A stretch of DNA of 34,065 nucleotides from Candidatus Magasanikiibacteriota bacterium (GTDB lineage Bacteria; Patescibacteriota; Patescibacteriia; Magasanikbacterales; UBA922). Under the pieces are notes generated by a model, which was given only the letters and a program-made list of their open reading frames with translations, had not been told where the DNA came from and searched no databases. The translations under genes were made by a program, and so were the position numbers. Below, in pieces: positions 1,251 to 19,387 of the stretch. Position 1 is the stretch's first letter, and the number at the start of each line of letters is the position of its first letter. Where the stretch lies: assembly GCA_018661775.1 (NCBI GenBank), contig JABJHO010000042.1, positions 1 to 34,065 of the forward strand, written 5' to 3'.

Positions 1251-4200
1251 ATGAACACGTTTTTTGCTAAACGAGATTACTTTTTGGCCATACCACTTGC
1301 GTGTTGTGTGTTTTTTACCATTGTTTTATGTGTGCTTGCTGTAGATGTGACGGTTACGGTAACGGTGCCCGCCATTTGTGGTAACGGTGCCATTGAAGGA
1401 GCAGAGGTGTGTGATGATGGAAACACGACAGCAGGAGACGGGTGCTCGGCTACATGTACTTCTGAATCCTCAAGCACTTCTAGCGGGAGCAGTTTTTCTA
1501 GTGCTCCACCACCGTCAGCAGTTGAGTCCACAGAAGAGAGCACAGAAACAGAAGAGGGTACAGAAACAGAAGAGAGCACAGAAACAGAAGAGGTGGTAAC
1601 AGAGGAACCCTTACCTGAAGAAGAAGAGGAGGAGGAAGAGGAGGAAGAGATTACAATATGTGGCGATGGTGTTGTACAAGAAACAGAGCAGTGTGATGAT
1701 GGTAATACAATTGCTGGCGATGGGTGTGATTTGGCCTGTGTAACAGAAATATGTGGAAATGGGTACTTGCAGGCTGGAGAAGGGTGTGATGATGGAAATG
1801 AGGATAACACAGATGCGTGTTTAGACGCATGTGTCGTCGCAACATGTGGTGATTATTATATACAAACAGGCGTTGAGCAGTGTGATGATGGTAATACAGT
1901 AGATAACGATGGGTGTTCTACCATGTGCCAAGAAGAGGTGTTGCCCCCTGGGTGTGGTGACGGCATTGTACAAGAAACAGAACAGTGTGATGACGGAAAC
2001 ACTATTGCCGGTGATGGGTGTGATTTGGCTTGTATAACAGAAGTATGTGGTAATGGGTATGTACAGGTTGGAGAAGGGTGTGATGACGGAAATGAGGATA
2101 ACACAGATGCGTGTTTAGACGCATGTGTTGTCGCAACATGTGGTGATTATTATATACAAACAGACGTTGAGCAGTGTGATGATGGTAATGTGGCAGATGG
2201 AGATGGGTGCTCTGCTTTATGTCAGGAAGAGGTCGCTGTTATTTGTGGCGATGGACTGCTCCAGGTTGAAGAAGAGTGTGATGATGGAAATTTGTTGAGC
2301 GGTGATGGGTGTAGTGATATGTGTGTATTTGAAATTTTTACTTTTTGTGGTGATGGTGTACCAGAAGGTGAAGAAATGTGTGATGACGGAAATAGTATAA
2401 ATGGTGATGGGTGTTCCGCAGCGTGCGAAATAGAAGAAGAAATACAGCCGGCATGCGGAGATGGTGTGTTGGGTGATGGAGAAATGTGTGATGATGGAAA
2501 CACGAGAAACAGAGACGGGTGTTCTGCAGCTTGTACAATAGAAGAAGAAATACAGCCAGCATGTGGAGATGGGTCATTTGACGCCGGAGAAGAGTGTGAT
2601 GATGGGAATATAATGAATGGAGATGGGTGTAGTTCGGCGTGTGTGTTTGAGATCCCTTCGATTTGTGGTGATGGTATTGTTGACGAAGGGGAGAGTTGTG
2701 ATGATGGGAATTTTGTAAACCAAGACGGATGTCTTGATACCTGTGCTTTTGCTGGGTGTGGTGATGGATTTATTTTTGCTGATATTGAGGAGTGTGATGA
2801 TGAAAATAGTGAAGATGGGGACGGGTGTTCTTCTTTCTGTATCAGTGAGATCATACCTTCGTGTGGTAATGATATTCTTGAAGCAGATGAGGTTTGTGAT
2901 GATGGAAATCGTTTTGATGGAGATGGGTGTTCTGCTTTATGCACTATTGAGTCAAAAAAATTAGCATTAGGAAACTTTATACTTCGTTTGGCAAATGGAG
3001 CAATTAGACCACAGGTAGATGATGAAAAAATATACACACTAACAGGGGATACGGTACAAATCTCGTTAGATAAAGAATTTTTTGATGAATATTCTGTACA
3101 ATCAATGGTTTTGCAGTATGTTGTTGGGGTAGATACCAAAAAATTTGTAGATCGAGGGATGTTAAGCTTTATTGATCCAGTGTATGCAGTAGAAGAGGGG
3201 TTACTACAAAAGCAACTAGGTTTTGTGCCACAAACACAGCGATTTTCTTCATCATTAGTGTTGGGTGAAGCTGGTATTCAGGATGTGGACATTGTTATTC
3301 GGTATAAGGACGGTGAAGTGGATCGTGTGCCGCTGCAGATTAATATAACACAACCTGGTACAATTATTTCTGATGATTCCAAAGAACCTTTGGTCGGTTC
3401 CACTGTAACTTTAATAGATGATCAGTCAAATGATGTGTGGCAGTCTGTTCATTTTGACCAAAATAATCCAACCCCCGTATCAAAAGACGGTACATATGGA
3501 TTTATAGTTCCTAATGGCGAATATATATTACGTGTTGAGAAAGAGGGATATAGAACACAAGAGTCATTTTCCTTTCGTGTTGAGAATAATATTGTGAATG
3601 AGGATGTGGTGTTAATGAAAAAGCTCCCAAAATTAATAGACTCGGTTGAGGATATTCTTGAGGAGGATATTTCTGCAGGAGAAAAAGTACAAAAGATTGC
3701 AGTTGTTTCTGCCACTAAGGCGGTTGAGGTTGCCAAGGTTGGTGTGCGGACTGTTGTTGAGGTCGCAAAAAAGATAGACGATGTAGCAGACGACCCGCTT
3801 GTTGAGGAAGTAACCGAAGAAGTAATAATCCCAACGACAGTTGCCGCGTCTGCAACCATTGTGCTGCCATCACTGTGGAGTATTATTATTCCATTGCTTC
3901 GCTTTTTGTTCCTTCAGCCATTACTCCTTTTGGGGTTGCGAAAAAGAAAAGAGTGGGGGGTTATTTATAATGCACTTACAAAGCTCCCAATTGATTTGGC
4001 GGTGGTGCGTATTGTTAATGCTGAAACAAAAAAAGTGGTACAATCACGCGTAACAGACTTAAAAGGAAGGTTTTTGTTTATTGTAAATCCTGGATCGTAT
4101 GTGATAGAGGTGACAAAACCAGGTTTTTCGTATCCATCAAGCATATTACAATCCGTAAAATCAGATGGTCGTTTTGCAGATATTTATCATAGTGAAACCA

Positions 4201-4730
4201 TAGAGGTAACACAAAAAGGTGTTGGTCTTACGCCAAATATACCGGTTGATCCGGTGGACGCAGAAAAAACACCAAAAAGAATTGTTTGGGAAAAACGTCT
4301 TCGAATTGTGCAGCATATTTTTGCGTCATCTGGTATTTATACAACAATGGTTGGGTTATATATTGCACCAACATTATGGCTTTGTGGATTTTTGGCCGTA
4401 CATATTGTGGTGTATTTGTTGTTCATCCATTTAATTCAACCAAAACAACCAAAAGGTTGGGGGATTGTATATGATAGCGAATCAGGAGAGCCTTTGGCAA
4501 AAGCAGTTGTTCGATTATTTAACAAACAATACGATAAACTGGTGGCAACATTTGTGACAGACAGAAAAGGTCGGTATGCATTTTTGGTAGGACCAAGCGT
4601 GTATTATCATATTTCTGAAAAGTCAGGATATAGGGAGTTAATTGGTCCGGATATTCGTATAAAAGAAAAAAAGGCCGAAGGGGGAATTATTAAAACAGAT
4701 GTACACTTAGAAAAAGATGGAGAAACATAA
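1251..4730 (+). CDS. Giant cysteine-rich repeat surface protein (Myxococcus-type repeats plus carboxypeptidase-regulatory-like domains)
   Basis: An 1159-residue protein. A signal segment covers about 1-30. The first cysteine repeat is at 42-70, followed by an acidic Ser/Thr/Glu linker (about 75-135) with STETEE-like units and an 11-Glu run. Thirteen more repeats fill about 137-567, giving 14 of the form CG(D/N)G....E.CDDGN...GDGCS..C, the DUF4215/Myxococcus cysteine-rich repeat; each should form internal disulfides outside the cell. Three carboxypeptidase-regulatory-like or SpaA-like beta domains follow (about 703-790, 902-960, 1068-1150), recognised by DG.Y.F.V..G.Y...V.K.GY. Hydrophobic segments near 869-897 and 1024-1063 lie between them, so the last domains may sit on either side of the membrane. 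It probably acts in adhesion or as cell-wall scaffold. No enzymatic motif is visible. Confidence 0.8.
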   Translation: MNTFFAKRDYFLAIPLACCVFFTIVLCVLAVDVTVTVTVPAICGNGAIEGAEVCDDGNTTAGDGCSATCTSESSSTSSGSSFSSAPPPSAVESTEESTETEEGTETEESTETEEVVTEEPLPEEEEEEEEEEEITICGDGVVQETEQCDDGNTIAGDGCDLACVTEICGNGYLQAGEGCDDGNEDNTDACLDACVVATCGDYYIQTGVEQCDDGNTVDNDGCSTMCQEEVLPPGCGDGIVQETEQCDDGNTIAGDGCDLACITEVCGNGYVQVGEGCDDGNEDNTDACLDACVVATCGDYYIQTDVEQCDDGNVADGDGCSALCQEEVAVICGDGLLQVEEECDDGNLLSGDGCSDMCVFEIFTFCGDGVPEGEEMCDDGNSINGDGCSAACEIEEEIQPACGDGVLGDGEMCDDGNTRNRDGCSAACTIEEEIQPACGDGSFDAGEECDDGNIMNGDGCSSACVFEIPSICGDGIVDEGESCDDGNFVNQDGCLDTCAFAGCGDGFIFADIEECDDENSEDGDGCSSFCISEIIPSCGNDILEADEVCDDGNRFDGDGCSALCTIESKKLALGNFILRLANGAIRPQVDDEKIYTLTGDTVQISLDKEFFDEYSVQSMVLQYVVGVDTKKFVDRGMLSFIDPVYAVEEGLLQKQLGFVPQTQRFSSSLVLGEAGIQDVDIVIRYKDGEVDRVPLQINITQPGTIISDDSKEPLVGSTVTLIDDQSNDVWQSVHFDQNNPTPVSKDGTYGFIVPNGEYILRVEKEGYRTQESFSFRVENNIVNEDVVLMKKLPKLIDSVEDILEEDISAGEKVQKIAVVSATKAVEVAKVGVRTVVEVAKKIDDVADDPLVEEVTEEVIIPTTVAASATIVLPSLWSIIIPLLRFLFLQPLLLLGLRKRKEWGVIYNALTKLPIDLAVVRIVNAETKKVVQSRVTDLKGRFLFIVNPGSYVIEVTKPGFSYPSSILQSVKSDGRFADIYHSETIEVTQKGVGLTPNIPVDPVDAEKTPKRIVWEKRLRIVQHIFASSGIYTTMVGLYIAPTLWLCGFLAVHIVVYLLFIHLIQPKQPKGWGIVYDSESGEPLAKAVVRLFNKQYDKLVATFVTDRKGRYAFLVGPSVYYHISEKSGYRELIGPDIRIKEKKAEGGIIKTDVHLEKDGET
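1659..2246 (+). repeat. In-gene tandem duplication of a 294-bp (98-residue) block
   Basis: Positions 1659-1952 and 1953-2246 carry the same three successive cysteine repeats in the same order. Long stretches are nearly identical in DNA; for example the region around 1801-1890 matches that around 2095-2184 with only scattered changes. The neighbouring repeats of the same protein differ much more in DNA sequence, so this block was duplicated recently. Confidence 0.85.
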
Positions 4731-13621: not shown

Positions 13622-14377
13622 ATGAGTGATATTCGTACTATATTGACCTCGCTAGGGTTACTTGAAAGTGAGGTAAAAACATATCTTGCGGCGCTTGGGC
13701 TTGGGCCAAGCACGGTGATTGCACTGTCAAAGGCAACAAAACTGTCTCGACAGGCTATTTATGATGCCTTGAGCGCGCTTGTTGAGCACGGTATTATGTC
13801 GAGTGTTCTAAAAGGCAAAAAACGGCATTATTTGGCAGAGCATCCAGATACATTGCTTGCCTATGCAAAAAAACGCAAAAGTGATTTGAGTGTACAAGTC
13901 AAAAATCTAAAACGGTTGGTACCAAAATTAACACTACAAATGGGCGGCGACAGACCGGTAGTAAGAATGTTAGAAGGAAAAGAAGGGGCAAAACTCCTTT
14001 CTGAAATGCTTGAACATCAAAAACGTGGTACACACATGTATGAGGTGTCGGATTTGGAGGCGGTAAATGAGGTGTTTACGGAAGAAGAATTGATGTTGTA
14101 CAGAAATGCATCAAAGAAGAAGGGGCTTACTTATGATGCAATTCTTCGAGGTGAACCAAAGACAGACAGTAAAGACGGAACTCAAAAATATATTATACCC
14201 GAGGATAAAATAGAATCATTTAATACCAATATTTCTATTGGTGAAAGAGAGATAAACATGGTGACATTGTCTGGAAAAATGTACACAATTCAAATAGAAA
14301 ACAAAGAGATTCGAGATGCCATGAAACTTCTCTTTGAGTTGGCAGTAAAAGGGCTCAAGAAACAAAAACATTCGTAA
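13622..14377 (+). CDS. TrmB-like transcriptional regulator 1
   Basis: A 251-residue protein. Residues 1-75 are a TrmB-type winged helix: LGLLESEVKTYLAALGLGPSTV, then the recognition helix region LSRQAIYDALSALVEHGIM and the wing GKKRHYLAEHP. A short coiled coil (about 80-105) and a C-terminal ligand or dimer domain follow. TrmB-family proteins in archaea bind sugars, but no sugar transport gene is near, and the C-terminal half lacks an obvious sugar-binding motif. The next gene is a paralogue 18 nt downstream in the same frame. The target genes are unknown; autoregulation is possible. Confidence 0.8.
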   Translation: MSDIRTILTSLGLLESEVKTYLAALGLGPSTVIALSKATKLSRQAIYDALSALVEHGIMSSVLKGKKRHYLAEHPDTLLAYAKKRKSDLSVQVKNLKRLVPKLTLQMGGDRPVVRMLEGKEGAKLLSEMLEHQKRGTHMYEVSDLEAVNEVFTEEELMLYRNASKKKGLTYDAILRGEPKTDSKDGTQKYIIPEDKIESFNTNISIGEREINMVTLSGKMYTIQIENKEIRDAMKLLFELAVKGLKKQKHS

Positions 14378-14395
14378 TTTCTATACTATAATTAT

Positions 14396-15139
14396 ATGAC
14401 AGATATTAAAAAAACACTCGGTGCCCTTGGGCTCCTTGAGAGTGAAATAAAAACCTATCTCGCTGCGCTGCATCTTGGGCCAAGTACAGTTATTACTCTT
14501 GCAAAAGCAACGCATCTTTCGCGTCAGGCTATTTATGATGCACTTGGTGTGCTTACAGACAGAGGTATCATGTCTTCTGTTATGCAAGGCAAAAAACGAC
14601 TGTATACTTCGGAGCATCCAGAAATGTTATTGACGCATGCCAAAGAAAAACAAGCAGATTTGGACAAGCAAATTGAAAGCCTCAAAGAGATGATTCCAAA
14701 ACTAGAATTACAAGTAAGTGGAGAACGTCCGGTGGTAAAAATGTTAGAAGGAAAAGAAGGGGTAAAAATGATGGCGGAGATTGTTGAAGATTTACCTTTT
14801 GGGGAAGAGTTATACGAGCTGGTTGACACTAAAGTGCTATTCAGTATACTGAATCCTGTAGATTTAGAGGATTATAGGGAAGCATTAAAAAAGAAGAAGA
14901 TTGAGGTGACGGCAATAGCCCTTGGAGACCCAGTAACGGAAAAGCCAGAAAACGTAAAATGCAGAATACTTCTTGATGAGAAAAAGCACGATAGTTTTGC
15001 TGCTAATCTTATTGTGGCGGGTAATAAGGTGTTTGCTGTATCGTTTACAGGAAAAATGTATGCAGTGTATATTGAAAATGAAGACATGGCAAATACAATA
15101 AAAATGCTATTTAAGCTTGCTGAGAATGCTAAAATATAA
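14396..15139 (+). CDS. TrmB-like transcriptional regulator 2 (tandem paralogue)
   Basis: A 247-residue protein with the same plan as its neighbour: winged helix (LGLLESEIKTYLAALHLGPS, LSRQAIYDALGVL, wing QGKKRLYTSEHP), coiled coil, and a C-terminal domain containing VVKMLEGKEGVKMM and ending in an SFTGKMYAVYIEN strand, as in copy 1. The N-terminal halves are close and the C-terminal halves have diverged, suggesting different effectors or partners. TATACT (14382-14387) lies 8 nt before the ATG, so an internal leaderless transcript is possible, although no good -35 is seen. Heterodimers with copy 1 are plausible. Confidence 0.8.
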   Translation: MTDIKKTLGALGLLESEIKTYLAALHLGPSTVITLAKATHLSRQAIYDALGVLTDRGIMSSVMQGKKRLYTSEHPEMLLTHAKEKQADLDKQIESLKEMIPKLELQVSGERPVVKMLEGKEGVKMMAEIVEDLPFGEELYELVDTKVLFSILNPVDLEDYREALKKKKIEVTAIALGDPVTEKPENVKCRILLDEKKHDSFAANLIVAGNKVFAVSFTGKMYAVYIENEDMANTIKMLFKLAENAKI

Positions 15140-15615: not shown

Positions 15616-15725
15616 TGCCATACAGCTACGGGGAATAACTGTATTTTTCTCAATACGCTATAAGTATAACATATTTCACTCAAGAGCAAAACACTGTATA
15701 GATACATGTGTTGATAACTGCTCTG

Positions 15726-15799
15726 AGCGGTAAACCAGATTCGAACTGGCGACCTCTTCCTTGGCAAGGAAGCGCTCTAGCCAACTGAGCTATTACCGC
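15726..15799 (-). tRNA. tRNA-Gly (anticodon GCC)
   Basis: Acceptor GCGGTAA/TTACCGC, discriminator T, anticodon arm CTTCC-TTGCCAA-GGAAG giving GCC, T arm GCCAG-TTCGAAT-CTGGT. CCA is not encoded. It is the last gene of the second minus-strand tRNA cluster. Confidence 0.94.
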
Positions 15800-15813: not shown

Positions 15814-15886
15814 TTGCGGGACCAGGACTCGAACCTGGAACCTTCGGGTTATGGGCCCGACGAGCTGCCAATTGCTCTATCCCGCT
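15814..15886 (-). tRNA. Initiator tRNA-Met (anticodon CAT) with C33
   Basis: Initiator features: no pairing at position 1-72 (here A1-A72), A11-U24 in the D stem GAGC/GCTC, and three G-C pairs closing the anticodon stem (TCGGG/CCCGA). T arm CCAGG-TTCGAGT-CCTGG, discriminator A, CCA not encoded. The anticodon loop reads CCCATAA, so position 33 is C and not the nearly universal U. All other tRNAs in the window have U33. Confidence 0.92.
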
Positions 15887-15912
15887 ATATTGGTGGTAGT
15901 ATGCTTACCCAG

Positions 15913-15985
15913 AGCGGATGACCGGAATCGAACCGGCATCATCGGCTTGGAAGGCCGAGATAATAAACCATTATACGACATCCGC
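15913..15985 (-). tRNA. tRNA-Gly (anticodon TCC)
   Basis: Acceptor GCGGATG/CATCCGC, discriminator T, anticodon arm TCGGC-CTTCCAA-GCCGA giving TCC, T arm GCCGG-TTCGATT-CCGGT. CCA is not encoded. It is the first gene of the cluster, just after its promoter. Confidence 0.94.
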
Positions 15986-17815: not shown

Positions 17816-18799
17816 ATGGGTACTATGCATACATTTGACCAGCTTGCGGCACATAAAAATAATTTAGATTTACGGTGGCAAATAATAAAAACCATTCGTG
17901 AGTTTTTTTGGGTACAAGAGTTTTGTGAAGTTGATGCACCGTCACTTATGCGACTTCCTGGTCAAGAACCATACTTGTCTCCAATGACACTTACTATTCA
18001 CGATGAGAATAGGAAAGAATATAAGCGATTTCTGCATACATCTCCAGAGTTTGCGATGAAAAAACTCCTTGCCGCAGGCTACACCAATATTTTTTATTTA
18101 GGAAAATGTTTTCGAGATTTTGAAAGTTTTGGTGGTAATCATTATCCGGAATTTACCATGTTGGAATGGTATAGAACTGAAACTGATTATACAAACATAA
18201 TGAAAGATGTTGAAGCGTTGTTCTTGGTGCTTGCAAAAAAAATACAAAAAGATATACCATACTTTTCTTCTTGGAACCGCGTCTCGATGAAAGAGCTTTG
18301 GCAAACACATGTTGGTGTTAATTTAGATGAGCACCTTACGCAGGATGCACTGTTTCAGCTATGTGTAACAAAAGGCTTTAGTCCGTTAAAGCAAGAGTCA
18401 TTCGAAGATTTGTTCTATCGAATATTTTTAAATTATATTGAACCAGAATTAGGAAAAGATGATCCGACTATTGTTTATGAGTATCCGGCACAAATGGCGG
18501 CGCTTGCAAAACTTTCTGACAAAGATACCCGTTATGCCGAACGGTTTGAGGTGTATGTTCACGGCATAGAAATTGCCAATGCGTTTTCTGAGCTCACAAA
18601 CGGAAAAGAGCAATATGATCGTTTTAAAAAAGAGCAAAAAACCCGAGAAAAACATAAAAAACCAGTATACGAAATTGATAGCAGTTTTATTGACGCAGTA
18701 CATAATTTACCAACATGTGCTGGCATTGCACTTGGGGTAGACAGGGTCGTACAACTTTTTACCGGTTGTAAAGATATTCAAAACGTGATAGTATCATGA
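17816..18799 (+). CDS. epmA: EF-P lysyl-lysine ligase (EpmA/PoxA/GenX-like class II synthetase)
   Basis: A 327-residue protein, matching EpmA (about 325) and lacking the anticodon-binding domain of lysyl-tRNA synthetase. Class II catalytic motifs: motif 1 region EVDAPSLMRLPGQEP (about 39-53), HTSPEFAMKKLL, motif 2 LGKCFRDFESFGGNHYPEFT (about 98-117) followed by MLEWYR, and motif 3 GIALGVDRV near 302-310. It should activate lysine or beta-lysine and attach it to the conserved EF-P lysine. The partner efp follows 21 nt downstream, which strongly supports the call. No epmB is present in the window. An alternative start lies 9 nt downstream (MHTFDQ); neither has a clear Shine-Dalgarno site. It ends in UGA, and the frame stays open into efp. 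Confidence 0.92.
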   Translation: MGTMHTFDQLAAHKNNLDLRWQIIKTIREFFWVQEFCEVDAPSLMRLPGQEPYLSPMTLTIHDENRKEYKRFLHTSPEFAMKKLLAAGYTNIFYLGKCFRDFESFGGNHYPEFTMLEWYRTETDYTNIMKDVEALFLVLAKKIQKDIPYFSSWNRVSMKELWQTHVGVNLDEHLTQDALFQLCVTKGFSPLKQESFEDLFYRIFLNYIEPELGKDDPTIVYEYPAQMAALAKLSDKDTRYAERFEVYVHGIEIANAFSELTNGKEQYDRFKKEQKTREKHKKPVYEIDSSFIDAVHNLPTCAGIALGVDRVVQLFTGCKDIQNVIVS

Positions 18800-18820
18800 T
18801 ATATAGTAATTGAATTTTAT

Positions 18821-19387
18821 ATGGCAGACACAACAGCTATTAAAAAAGGCGCCGTCATTCGTCACAACAATGACTTGTACGTAGTTACCGATTTTAGTTT
18901 TGTAAGTCCCGGAAAGGGGAGTGCGTTTACCAAAACAAAAATGAAAAGTATAAGTGCAGGAAAAACGATTGAAATTACCTACAAAAGCGGAGAAACGGTA
19001 GACGTGGTTCAAGTAAGTAGGCAAACCATGCAATATTTATATAAAAATGGTGATATGTTTTCTTTTATGAATAAAGAAACATATGAAACCATAGATGTTT
19101 CTGTAGATGTTTTGGGAAATGACGCAAAATATTTAAAAGAAGGCATGGACGTTATTGCAGTGGTTCATGAAGAAAATATTGTGGCAATTCAGCTCCCCAT
19201 TAAGGTACAATACACAGTAAAAACCGCACCTCCAGCAGTAAAAGGAGATTCTGCAAGTGGGAACGTTACAAAAGAGGTGGTTCTGGAAAATGATTTAACC
19301 ATTCAAGCACCAATATTTATTAAAGAAGGTGAGGAGATATTGGTTAATACTGAGACAGGTGACTATGGCGGAAGAGTGACTAATTAA
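18821..19387 (+). CDS. efp: Translation elongation factor P
   Basis: A 188-residue protein, the usual size. It relieves ribosome stalling at proline runs. Domain I (1-65) carries the modification loop SPGKGSAF with Lys32 at the tip, the residue corresponding to the EpmA-modified lysine of E. coli EF-P. Domains II and III follow, with the C-terminal signature (PIFIKEGEEILVNTETGDY) intact. It forms an operon with epmA, so the modification system and its substrate are made together. No Shine-Dalgarno site is seen; translation may be coupled to epmA. It ends at a hairpin with a GAAA loop. Confidence 0.97.
   Translation: MADTTAIKKGAVIRHNNDLYVVTDFSFVSPGKGSAFTKTKMKSISAGKTIEITYKSGETVDVVQVSRQTMQYLYKNGDMFSFMNKETYETIDVSVDVLGNDAKYLKEGMDVIAVVHEENIVAIQLPIKVQYTVKTAPPAVKGDSASGNVTKEVVLENDLTIQAPIFIKEGEEILVNTETGDYGGRVTN

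What the first reader, a model, noticed from the sequence alone, without database searches (positions are those of the whole stretch)
15814..15886. Initiator tRNA with C33 and an A1-A72 mismatch
The anticodon loop is CCCATAA where bacterial initiators have CTCATAA. U33 makes the U-turn and is almost invariant; C33 is known mainly from eukaryotic cytoplasmic initiators. The 1-72 mismatch required for initiators is A-A and not the usual C-A. The A11-U24 pair and three G-C pairs show it is a true initiator. This may be tied to the many leaderless or Shine-Dalgarno-free starts seen here.
Basis: partly seen in the sequence, partly recalled or inferred. Interest (0 to 1): 0.6.

Follow-up and report, generated by a model that had tools for sequence, protein, structure and literature searches.

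The report
Bacterial initiator tRNA with cytosine 33
The only start-codon tRNA of this tiny-genome bacterium has C where nearly all tRNAs have U next to the anticodon; this is inherited and common in its class, and turns up again in unrelated bacteria and archaea, so the 'invariant' U33 seems optional for a tRNA that only starts proteins.

Summary
Window 15814-15886 (-) is a perfect cloverleaf initiator tRNA with loop CCCATAA (C33 at 15854), A1/A72 unpaired, A11-U24 and three G-C pairs. It is the only initiator found in a complete 38-tRNA genome; the other 37 tRNAs have U33. An independent congener assembly has the same loop, so it is not an assembly error.

The genome belongs to Magasanikbacteria (Patescibacteria). 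C33 is ancestral in the order on an rpoB tree, with at least 8 changes (mostly back to U33). It is the majority state in the class, rare elsewhere in the phylum, and recurs in Weissella/Leuconostoc, Erysipelotrichaceae, Planctomycetota, Elusimicrobiota, Omnitrophota and DPANN archaea. A1-A72 (27 of 72 in the order) is an ordinary mismatch variant; Fmt is present.

Unreported as far as I could find: C33 occurs almost only with a purine at 29 (150 of 151 genomes), while U29-A41 goes with U33 (41 of 42). P-site contacts and low Shine-Dalgarno use do not differ between C33 and U33 relatives, so the leaderless link is not supported.

Best reading: a functional fMet-tRNA in which U33 is dispensable because it decodes only in the P site, with C33 tolerated when pair 29-41 is purine-pyrimidine.

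The parts
15814..15886 (-). initiator tRNA gene, tRNA-fMet(CAU), positions 1-73
   Evidence: ARAGORN; Rfam RF00005 58.5 bits; cloverleaf MFE fold
15849..15855 (-). anticodon loop 5'-CCCAUAA-3' (positions 32-38); C33 at 15854, anticodon CAU at 15851-15853
   Evidence: read directly; loop table of all own tRNAs
15856..15858 (-). 5' side of the three G-C pairs (G29 at 15858, G30, G31)
   Evidence: (L050)
15846..15848 (-). 3' side of the three G-C pairs (C39, C40, C41 at 15846)
   Evidence: (L050)
15886..15886 (-). A1, opposite A72: unpaired
   Evidence: fold
15814..15815 (-). A72 (15815) and discriminator A73 (15814); CCA not encoded
15725..15799 (-). neighbouring tRNA-Gly(GCC), U33, same cluster
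15912..15985 (-). neighbouring tRNA-Gly(UCC), U33, same cluster

Best explanation
This is the cell's only, working initiator tRNA. MetRS charges it, Fmt formylates it (the A1-A72 mismatch and A11-U24 are the signals), IF2 brings it to the ribosome, and the G-C pairs 29-31/39-41 dock against 16S G1338/A1339 in the P site. U33 is close to indispensable for tRNAs that are decoded in the A site, but an initiator pairs with its codon only in the P site, where the ribosome holds the backbone around 33 and not the base. U33 can therefore drift to the other pyrimidine, C33. In this lineage C33 became fixed deep in the order (and probably the class) and has since flipped, mostly back to U33. It is tolerated only while pair 29-41 is purine-pyrimidine. 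My proposal is that C33 initiators rely on the special initiator loop shape, in which A37 contacts pair 29-41, so that a pyrimidine at 29 forces a return to a U33-type turn. Shown: anatomy, uniqueness, inheritance, recurrence, the 29/33 association, unchanged P-site contacts where read, presence of Fmt. Inferred: function, relaxed constraint, and the structural reason for the coupling.
For: Single initiator with every identity element; 37 of 37 other tRNAs keep U33. Fmt gene above cut-off in this genome, 264.7 bits, and in 77 of 86 of the order. C33 in 49 of 72 order genomes, 96 of 114 listed class genomes outside the order, 6 of 89 matched genomes elsewhere in the phylum. The rpoB tree puts C33 at the base of the order with at least 8 changes. 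Only C or U occurs at 33 in matches that look like initiators. C33 is the only state found in isolates such as Weissella confusa (two copies), Leuconostoc inhae and Convivina intestini. uS9 ends in KR wherever read (11 C33 and 7 U33 genomes), and 16S A790 and G1338/A1339 do not differ wherever read. Literature: U33 mutations degrade elongator decoding in yeast (PMC3664417); the uS9 C-terminal Arg contacts phosphates of 32, 33 and 35 (PMC7005279); the free initiator loop is non-canonical with A37 in a triple with pair 29-41 (PMC4611024). Coupling: U29 goes with U33 in 8 of 8 (order), 11 of 12 (class) and 22 of 22 (rest of phylum). On the tree all four gains of U29 lie on U33 branches or appear with the change to U33, and both losses of U29 coincide with a return to C33.
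Against: No expression, charging, formylation or ribosome-binding data. Recurrent C33, and its being the majority state in one class, could mean positive selection rather than drift. One genome (G163) combines U29-A41 with C33. The tree-based coupling rests on few independent events (sign test p 0.5 with 5 pairs). About a quarter of class genomes had no pattern match and are uncounted. uS9 of the window genome itself was not read, and its 16S is broken on a short contig (the congener's was read).
Confidence: 0.7

Rival explanations
1. C33 is selected, not just tolerated: it weakens A-site decoding and so keeps the initiator out of elongation, adding to fMet and the 1-72 mismatch.
For: Recurrent gain in many phyla and fixation in most of one class; restricted to the initiator; also found in eukaryotic initiators (PMC9023262; PMC8080527).
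Against: About six separate returns to U33 in the order with all other features unchanged; U33 initiators are the rule in the rest of the phylum and in Lactobacillales, so C33 is not needed.
Confidence: 0.18
2. C33 adapts initiation to leaderless or Shine-Dalgarno-free mRNAs.
For: SD motifs are indeed rare and -10-like motifs are common just upstream of starts.
Against: The same holds in U33 relatives G012 and G075; the anti-SD is intact in the congener and in all other 16S genes in which that end was read; Weissella and Leuconostoc also have C33.
Confidence: 0.04
3. The gene encodes C33 but the RNA is edited to U33 (C-to-U), so the mature tRNA is ordinary.
For: C-to-U editing of tRNAs exists elsewhere (own knowledge); sequence alone cannot exclude it.
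Against: It would have to be invented independently in several phyla and two domains; U33 states arise by simple mutation in sister lineages; C33 is the recorded state of eukaryotic initiators (PMC9023262).
Confidence: 0.05
4. Assembly or sequencing error, or a pseudogene beside a normal initiator.
For: The genome is a fragmented assembly of 59 contigs.
Against: Same base in the congener and in dozens of independent assemblies, complete cloverleaf, no other initiator in the genome.
Confidence: 0.01

Closest known systems
Bacterial initiator tRNA-fMet (E. coli type)
   Same: CAU anticodon, 1-72 mismatch, A11-U24, G29-C41/G30-C40/G31-C39, A73, loop otherwise CNCAUAA, Fmt in the genome
   Different: C33 for U33; A1-A72 for C1-A72; 8-nt D loop AATTGGCA; CCA not encoded
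Metazoan cytoplasmic initiator tRNA-Met-i
   Same: C33 with the same loop and flanking pairs (GGGCCCAUAACCC; human sequence recalled, C33 itself from PMC9023262 and PMC8080527)
   Different: That one has A1-U72, A54 and no formylation; here A1-A72, U54 and an Fmt gene. Convergence, not membership
Initiators of DPANN archaea with C33 (e.g. Pacearchaeota, L148; Nanohalarchaeota, L176)
   Same: C33, A11-U24, G or A at 29 followed by G30-C40 and G31-C39
   Different: A1-U72 pair, as in other archaeal initiators
Initiators of Weissella/Leuconostoc/Convivina with C33
   Same: C33 with three G-C pairs and a 1-72 mismatch; only state found in several isolates
   Different: Bacillota; independent origin, since U33 is the rule in Lactobacillales
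Sulfolobales tRNA-Cys with C33 (PMC7668247)
   Same: Another natural C33
   Different: An elongator, in archaea

Membership tests
Bacterial initiator tRNA (tRNA-fMet) | CAU anticodon in a 7-nt loop, cloverleaf fold | tested here: met
Bacterial initiator tRNA (tRNA-fMet) | no Watson-Crick pair at 1-72 | tested here: met
   A1/A72, unpaired in the fold
Bacterial initiator tRNA (tRNA-fMet) | A11-U24 in the D stem | tested here: met
Bacterial initiator tRNA (tRNA-fMet) | three consecutive G-C pairs 29-31/39-41 | tested here: met
Bacterial initiator tRNA (tRNA-fMet) | U33 (usual, not defining for initiators) | tested here: not met
   C33 at 15854; also C33 in many other bacterial initiators
Bacterial initiator tRNA (tRNA-fMet) | methionyl-tRNA formyltransferase in the same genome | tested here: met
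   TIGR00460 match at G000:C17:50004-50888, 264.7 bits, cut-off 201.5
Bacterial initiator tRNA (tRNA-fMet) | charged, formylated and bound in the P site in vivo | not testable with these tools
   needs tRNA biochemistry
Eukaryotic cytoplasmic initiator | A1-U72 pair | tested here: not met
   A1/A72
Eukaryotic cytoplasmic initiator | A54 in the T loop | tested here: not met
   T loop begins TTC, so U54
Initiator specialised for leaderless mRNAs | C33 lineages use fewer SD sites than U33 sister lineages | tested here: not met
   6.6% and 2.7% against 1.9% and 2.6%

The most novel reading that the evidence does not exclude
Residue 33 and pair 29-41 of initiator tRNAs form a coupled switch between two loop architectures: a U33 U-turn form that accepts any 29-41 pair, and a C33 form that needs a purine at 29 and relies on the A37/29-41 contact. 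Bacteria and archaea move repeatedly between them, with different balances of P-site affinity and A-site exclusion.
Probability: 0.25. Interest if true: 0.7.

Novelty: new variant of a known kind. Interest (0 to 1): 0.48.

Why it matters
U33 is taught as near-invariant and the three G-C pairs as universal among initiators. Here a large bacterial class mostly lacks U33 in its initiator, and many Patescibacteria lack the G29-C41 pair, while the P-site rRNA contacts stay unchanged wherever they were read. That separates what the P site needs from what the A site needs, and offers natural U33/C33 sister pairs plus culturable C33 bacteria (Weissella, Leuconostoc) to test it. It also warns annotation tools and tRNA engineers not to treat C33 initiators as errors.

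Tried and rejected
First genus search used a pattern with one base too many and found nothing; corrected. A named locus cannot be used directly as a search centre; solved by taking handles first. Looked for a compensating change in the ribosome (uS9 tail; 16S 790, 966-967 region, 1338-1339; anti-SD): none separates C33 from U33. Tested SD and -10-like signals upstream of starts in two C33 and two U33 genomes: no difference tied to C33. An apparent C29/C33 hit in a Phycisphaerales genome (L267) does not fold as a tRNA and was dropped. Three key papers (tRNomics 2002; Barraud 2008; Bhattacharyya and Varshney 2016) are not in the held library, so priority for C33 in bacteria could not be fully checked; ten full-text searches gave no report of it.

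Full report
What is there. The gene at 15814-15886 (-) reads AGCGGGA TA GAGC AATTGGCA GCTC G TCGGG CCCATAA CCCGA AGGTT CCAGG TTCGAGT CCTGG TCCCGCA A. ARAGORN, Rfam and the energy fold agree on a complete tRNA; the fold leaves exactly positions 1 and 72 of the acceptor stem unpaired. It lies in a small cluster between tRNA-Gly(GCC) and tRNA-Gly(UCC).

Is it the cell's initiator? The genome (981 kb, 59 contigs, 100% complete by its estimate) holds 38 tRNAs. Listing all of them gives one initiator, one elongator Met (loop TTCATAA) and 36 others; apart from the initiator every tRNA has U33. So C33 is specific to the initiator, and there is no normal copy beside it. Methionyl-tRNA formyltransferase is present above its cut-off, so the A-A mismatch sits in a normal formylating system.

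Whose genome? The genome with handle G030, in the same family, carries its initiator on a contig of 125,866 bases at 60141-60159, exactly as DMXO01000006.1, Candidatus Magasanikbacteria UBA11699. Another order member, G069, matches LBTN01000005.1, Magasanikbacteria GWA2_37_8 (75,730 bases). The window is therefore a Magasanikbacteria-type Patescibacterium.

How wide is C33? In the order, 72 initiators were parsed: C33 in 49, U33 in 23; 1-72 is C-A in 39, A-A in 27, U-A in 4, C-U 1, U-U 1. In the class outside the order, the rows listed by the tool give C33 in 96 and U33 in 18 (the list was cut off, and 103 of 381 genomes had no match). In the phylum outside the class it is 6 against 83. By their record titles they include Weissella, Leuconostoc, Convivina, Fructilactobacillus, Erysipelotrichaceae, Planctomycetota, Elusimicrobiota, Omnitrophota, Lentisphaerota and DPANN archaea, the last with A1-U72. 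Single hits in other phyla may be binning errors. In Weissella confusa both copies are C33, in Leuconostoc inhae and Convivina the only copy, while Fructilactobacillus lindneri has one C33 and one U33. Among Lactobacillales only three genomes in the listed rows had it, so that origin is separate.

History. An rpoB tree of 73 order members with parsimony puts C33 at the root of the order, with six changes to U33 and two back. Position 1 changes at least 14 times, so A1-A72 against C1-A72 is a labile, ordinary variation. The root is a midpoint, so direction is likely but not proven.

A coupling that nobody asked about. Many of these initiators do not have G29-C41. A29-U41 is common with either C33 or U33; U29-A41 occurs 8 times in the order, 12 in the listed class and 22 in the rest of the phylum, and with C33 only once (G163, f53). 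Turned round, 150 of 151 C33 genomes have a purine at 29 (Fisher p 4e-5 in the order and 6e-10 in the class, not corrected for kinship). On the tree the four gains of U29 fall on U33 branches or appear with the change to U33, and the two losses of U29 (G061, G068) coincide with a return to C33. U33 branches make up about 27% of the tree length. The formal pair test has too few events, so this is strong as a pattern and moderate as evolution. Positions 29 and 33 were read by hand from the listed rows for the class and phylum counts. The named scan demanded a purine at 29, so it is not evidence for the coupling. A review states that three G-C pairs are found in all initiators in all kingdoms (PMC4611024); the loss of G29-C41 in many Patescibacteria goes against that.

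Mechanism. The uS9 C-terminal arginine touches phosphates of 32, 33 and 35, and G1338/A1339 touch pairs 29-41 and 30-40 (PMC7005279), so the P site need not read base 33. The free initiator loop is not a normal U-turn: A37 forms a triple with pair 29-41, and 32-38 pair in a wobble-like way (PMC4611024). U33 mutations hurt elongator decoding in yeast (PMC3664417). Together these suggest that U33 is kept for A-site decoding and is optional in a tRNA that only initiates, and that the loop shape links 33 to 29-41. In the genomes where they were read, the uS9 ending KR and 16S A790/G1338/A1339 are the same in C33 and U33 members, so no ribosomal change at these contacts is needed. uS9 of the window genome itself was not recovered by my motif search.

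Leaderless idea. The anti-SD CACCTCCTTT is intact in the congener and in all other 16S genes in which that end was read. SD motifs before starts are at 6.6% (window genome) and 2.7% (G030) for C33, and 1.9% (G012) and 2.6% (G075) for U33, against about 3% at internal ATGs. Low SD use is thus a feature of the lineage, not of C33. Start sites were taken as the first ATG of long ORFs, which blurs but should not bias the comparison.

Known or new? C33 is on record for eukaryotic initiators (PMC9023262; PMC8080527) and for tRNA-Cys of Sulfolobales (PMC7668247). I found no report of C33 in bacterial or DPANN initiators in the held library, but the key surveys are not held. I file it as a new variant of a known kind.

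Noticed in passing
L020 (G000:C51:44243-44315): The genome has tRNA-Ile(UAU) and only two CAU tRNAs (initiator and elongator Met), so AUA seems to be read by UAU and not by a lysidine-modified CAU tRNA-Ile.
   Followed up: no
17816-19387 (+): EpmA-like EF-P lysyl-transferase (TIGR00462, above cut-off) directly beside EF-P (TIGR00038, above cut-off) in a reduced genome.
   Followed up: no
1251-4730 (+): 1159-aa protein with 13 stretches of the cysteine-rich repeat TIGR02232 (myxo_disulf_rpt).
   Followed up: no
13622-15139 (+): Two adjacent TrmB-like regulators, a family better known from archaea.
   Followed up: no
L366 (G005): Initiator with C33 and U39, so pair 31-39 is G-U: another break of the three G-C rule.
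   Followed up: no
order-wide 16S hits, e.g. G084:C9:2223-4265 and G029:C11:47987-49789: Some 16S genes span 1.8-2.0 kb, suggesting insertions or introns.
   Followed up: no
G390:C10:5691-5709 and G127:C4:66374-66392: Second initiator-like matches in class genomes, one with C29 and U33; not checked for folding.
   Followed up: no
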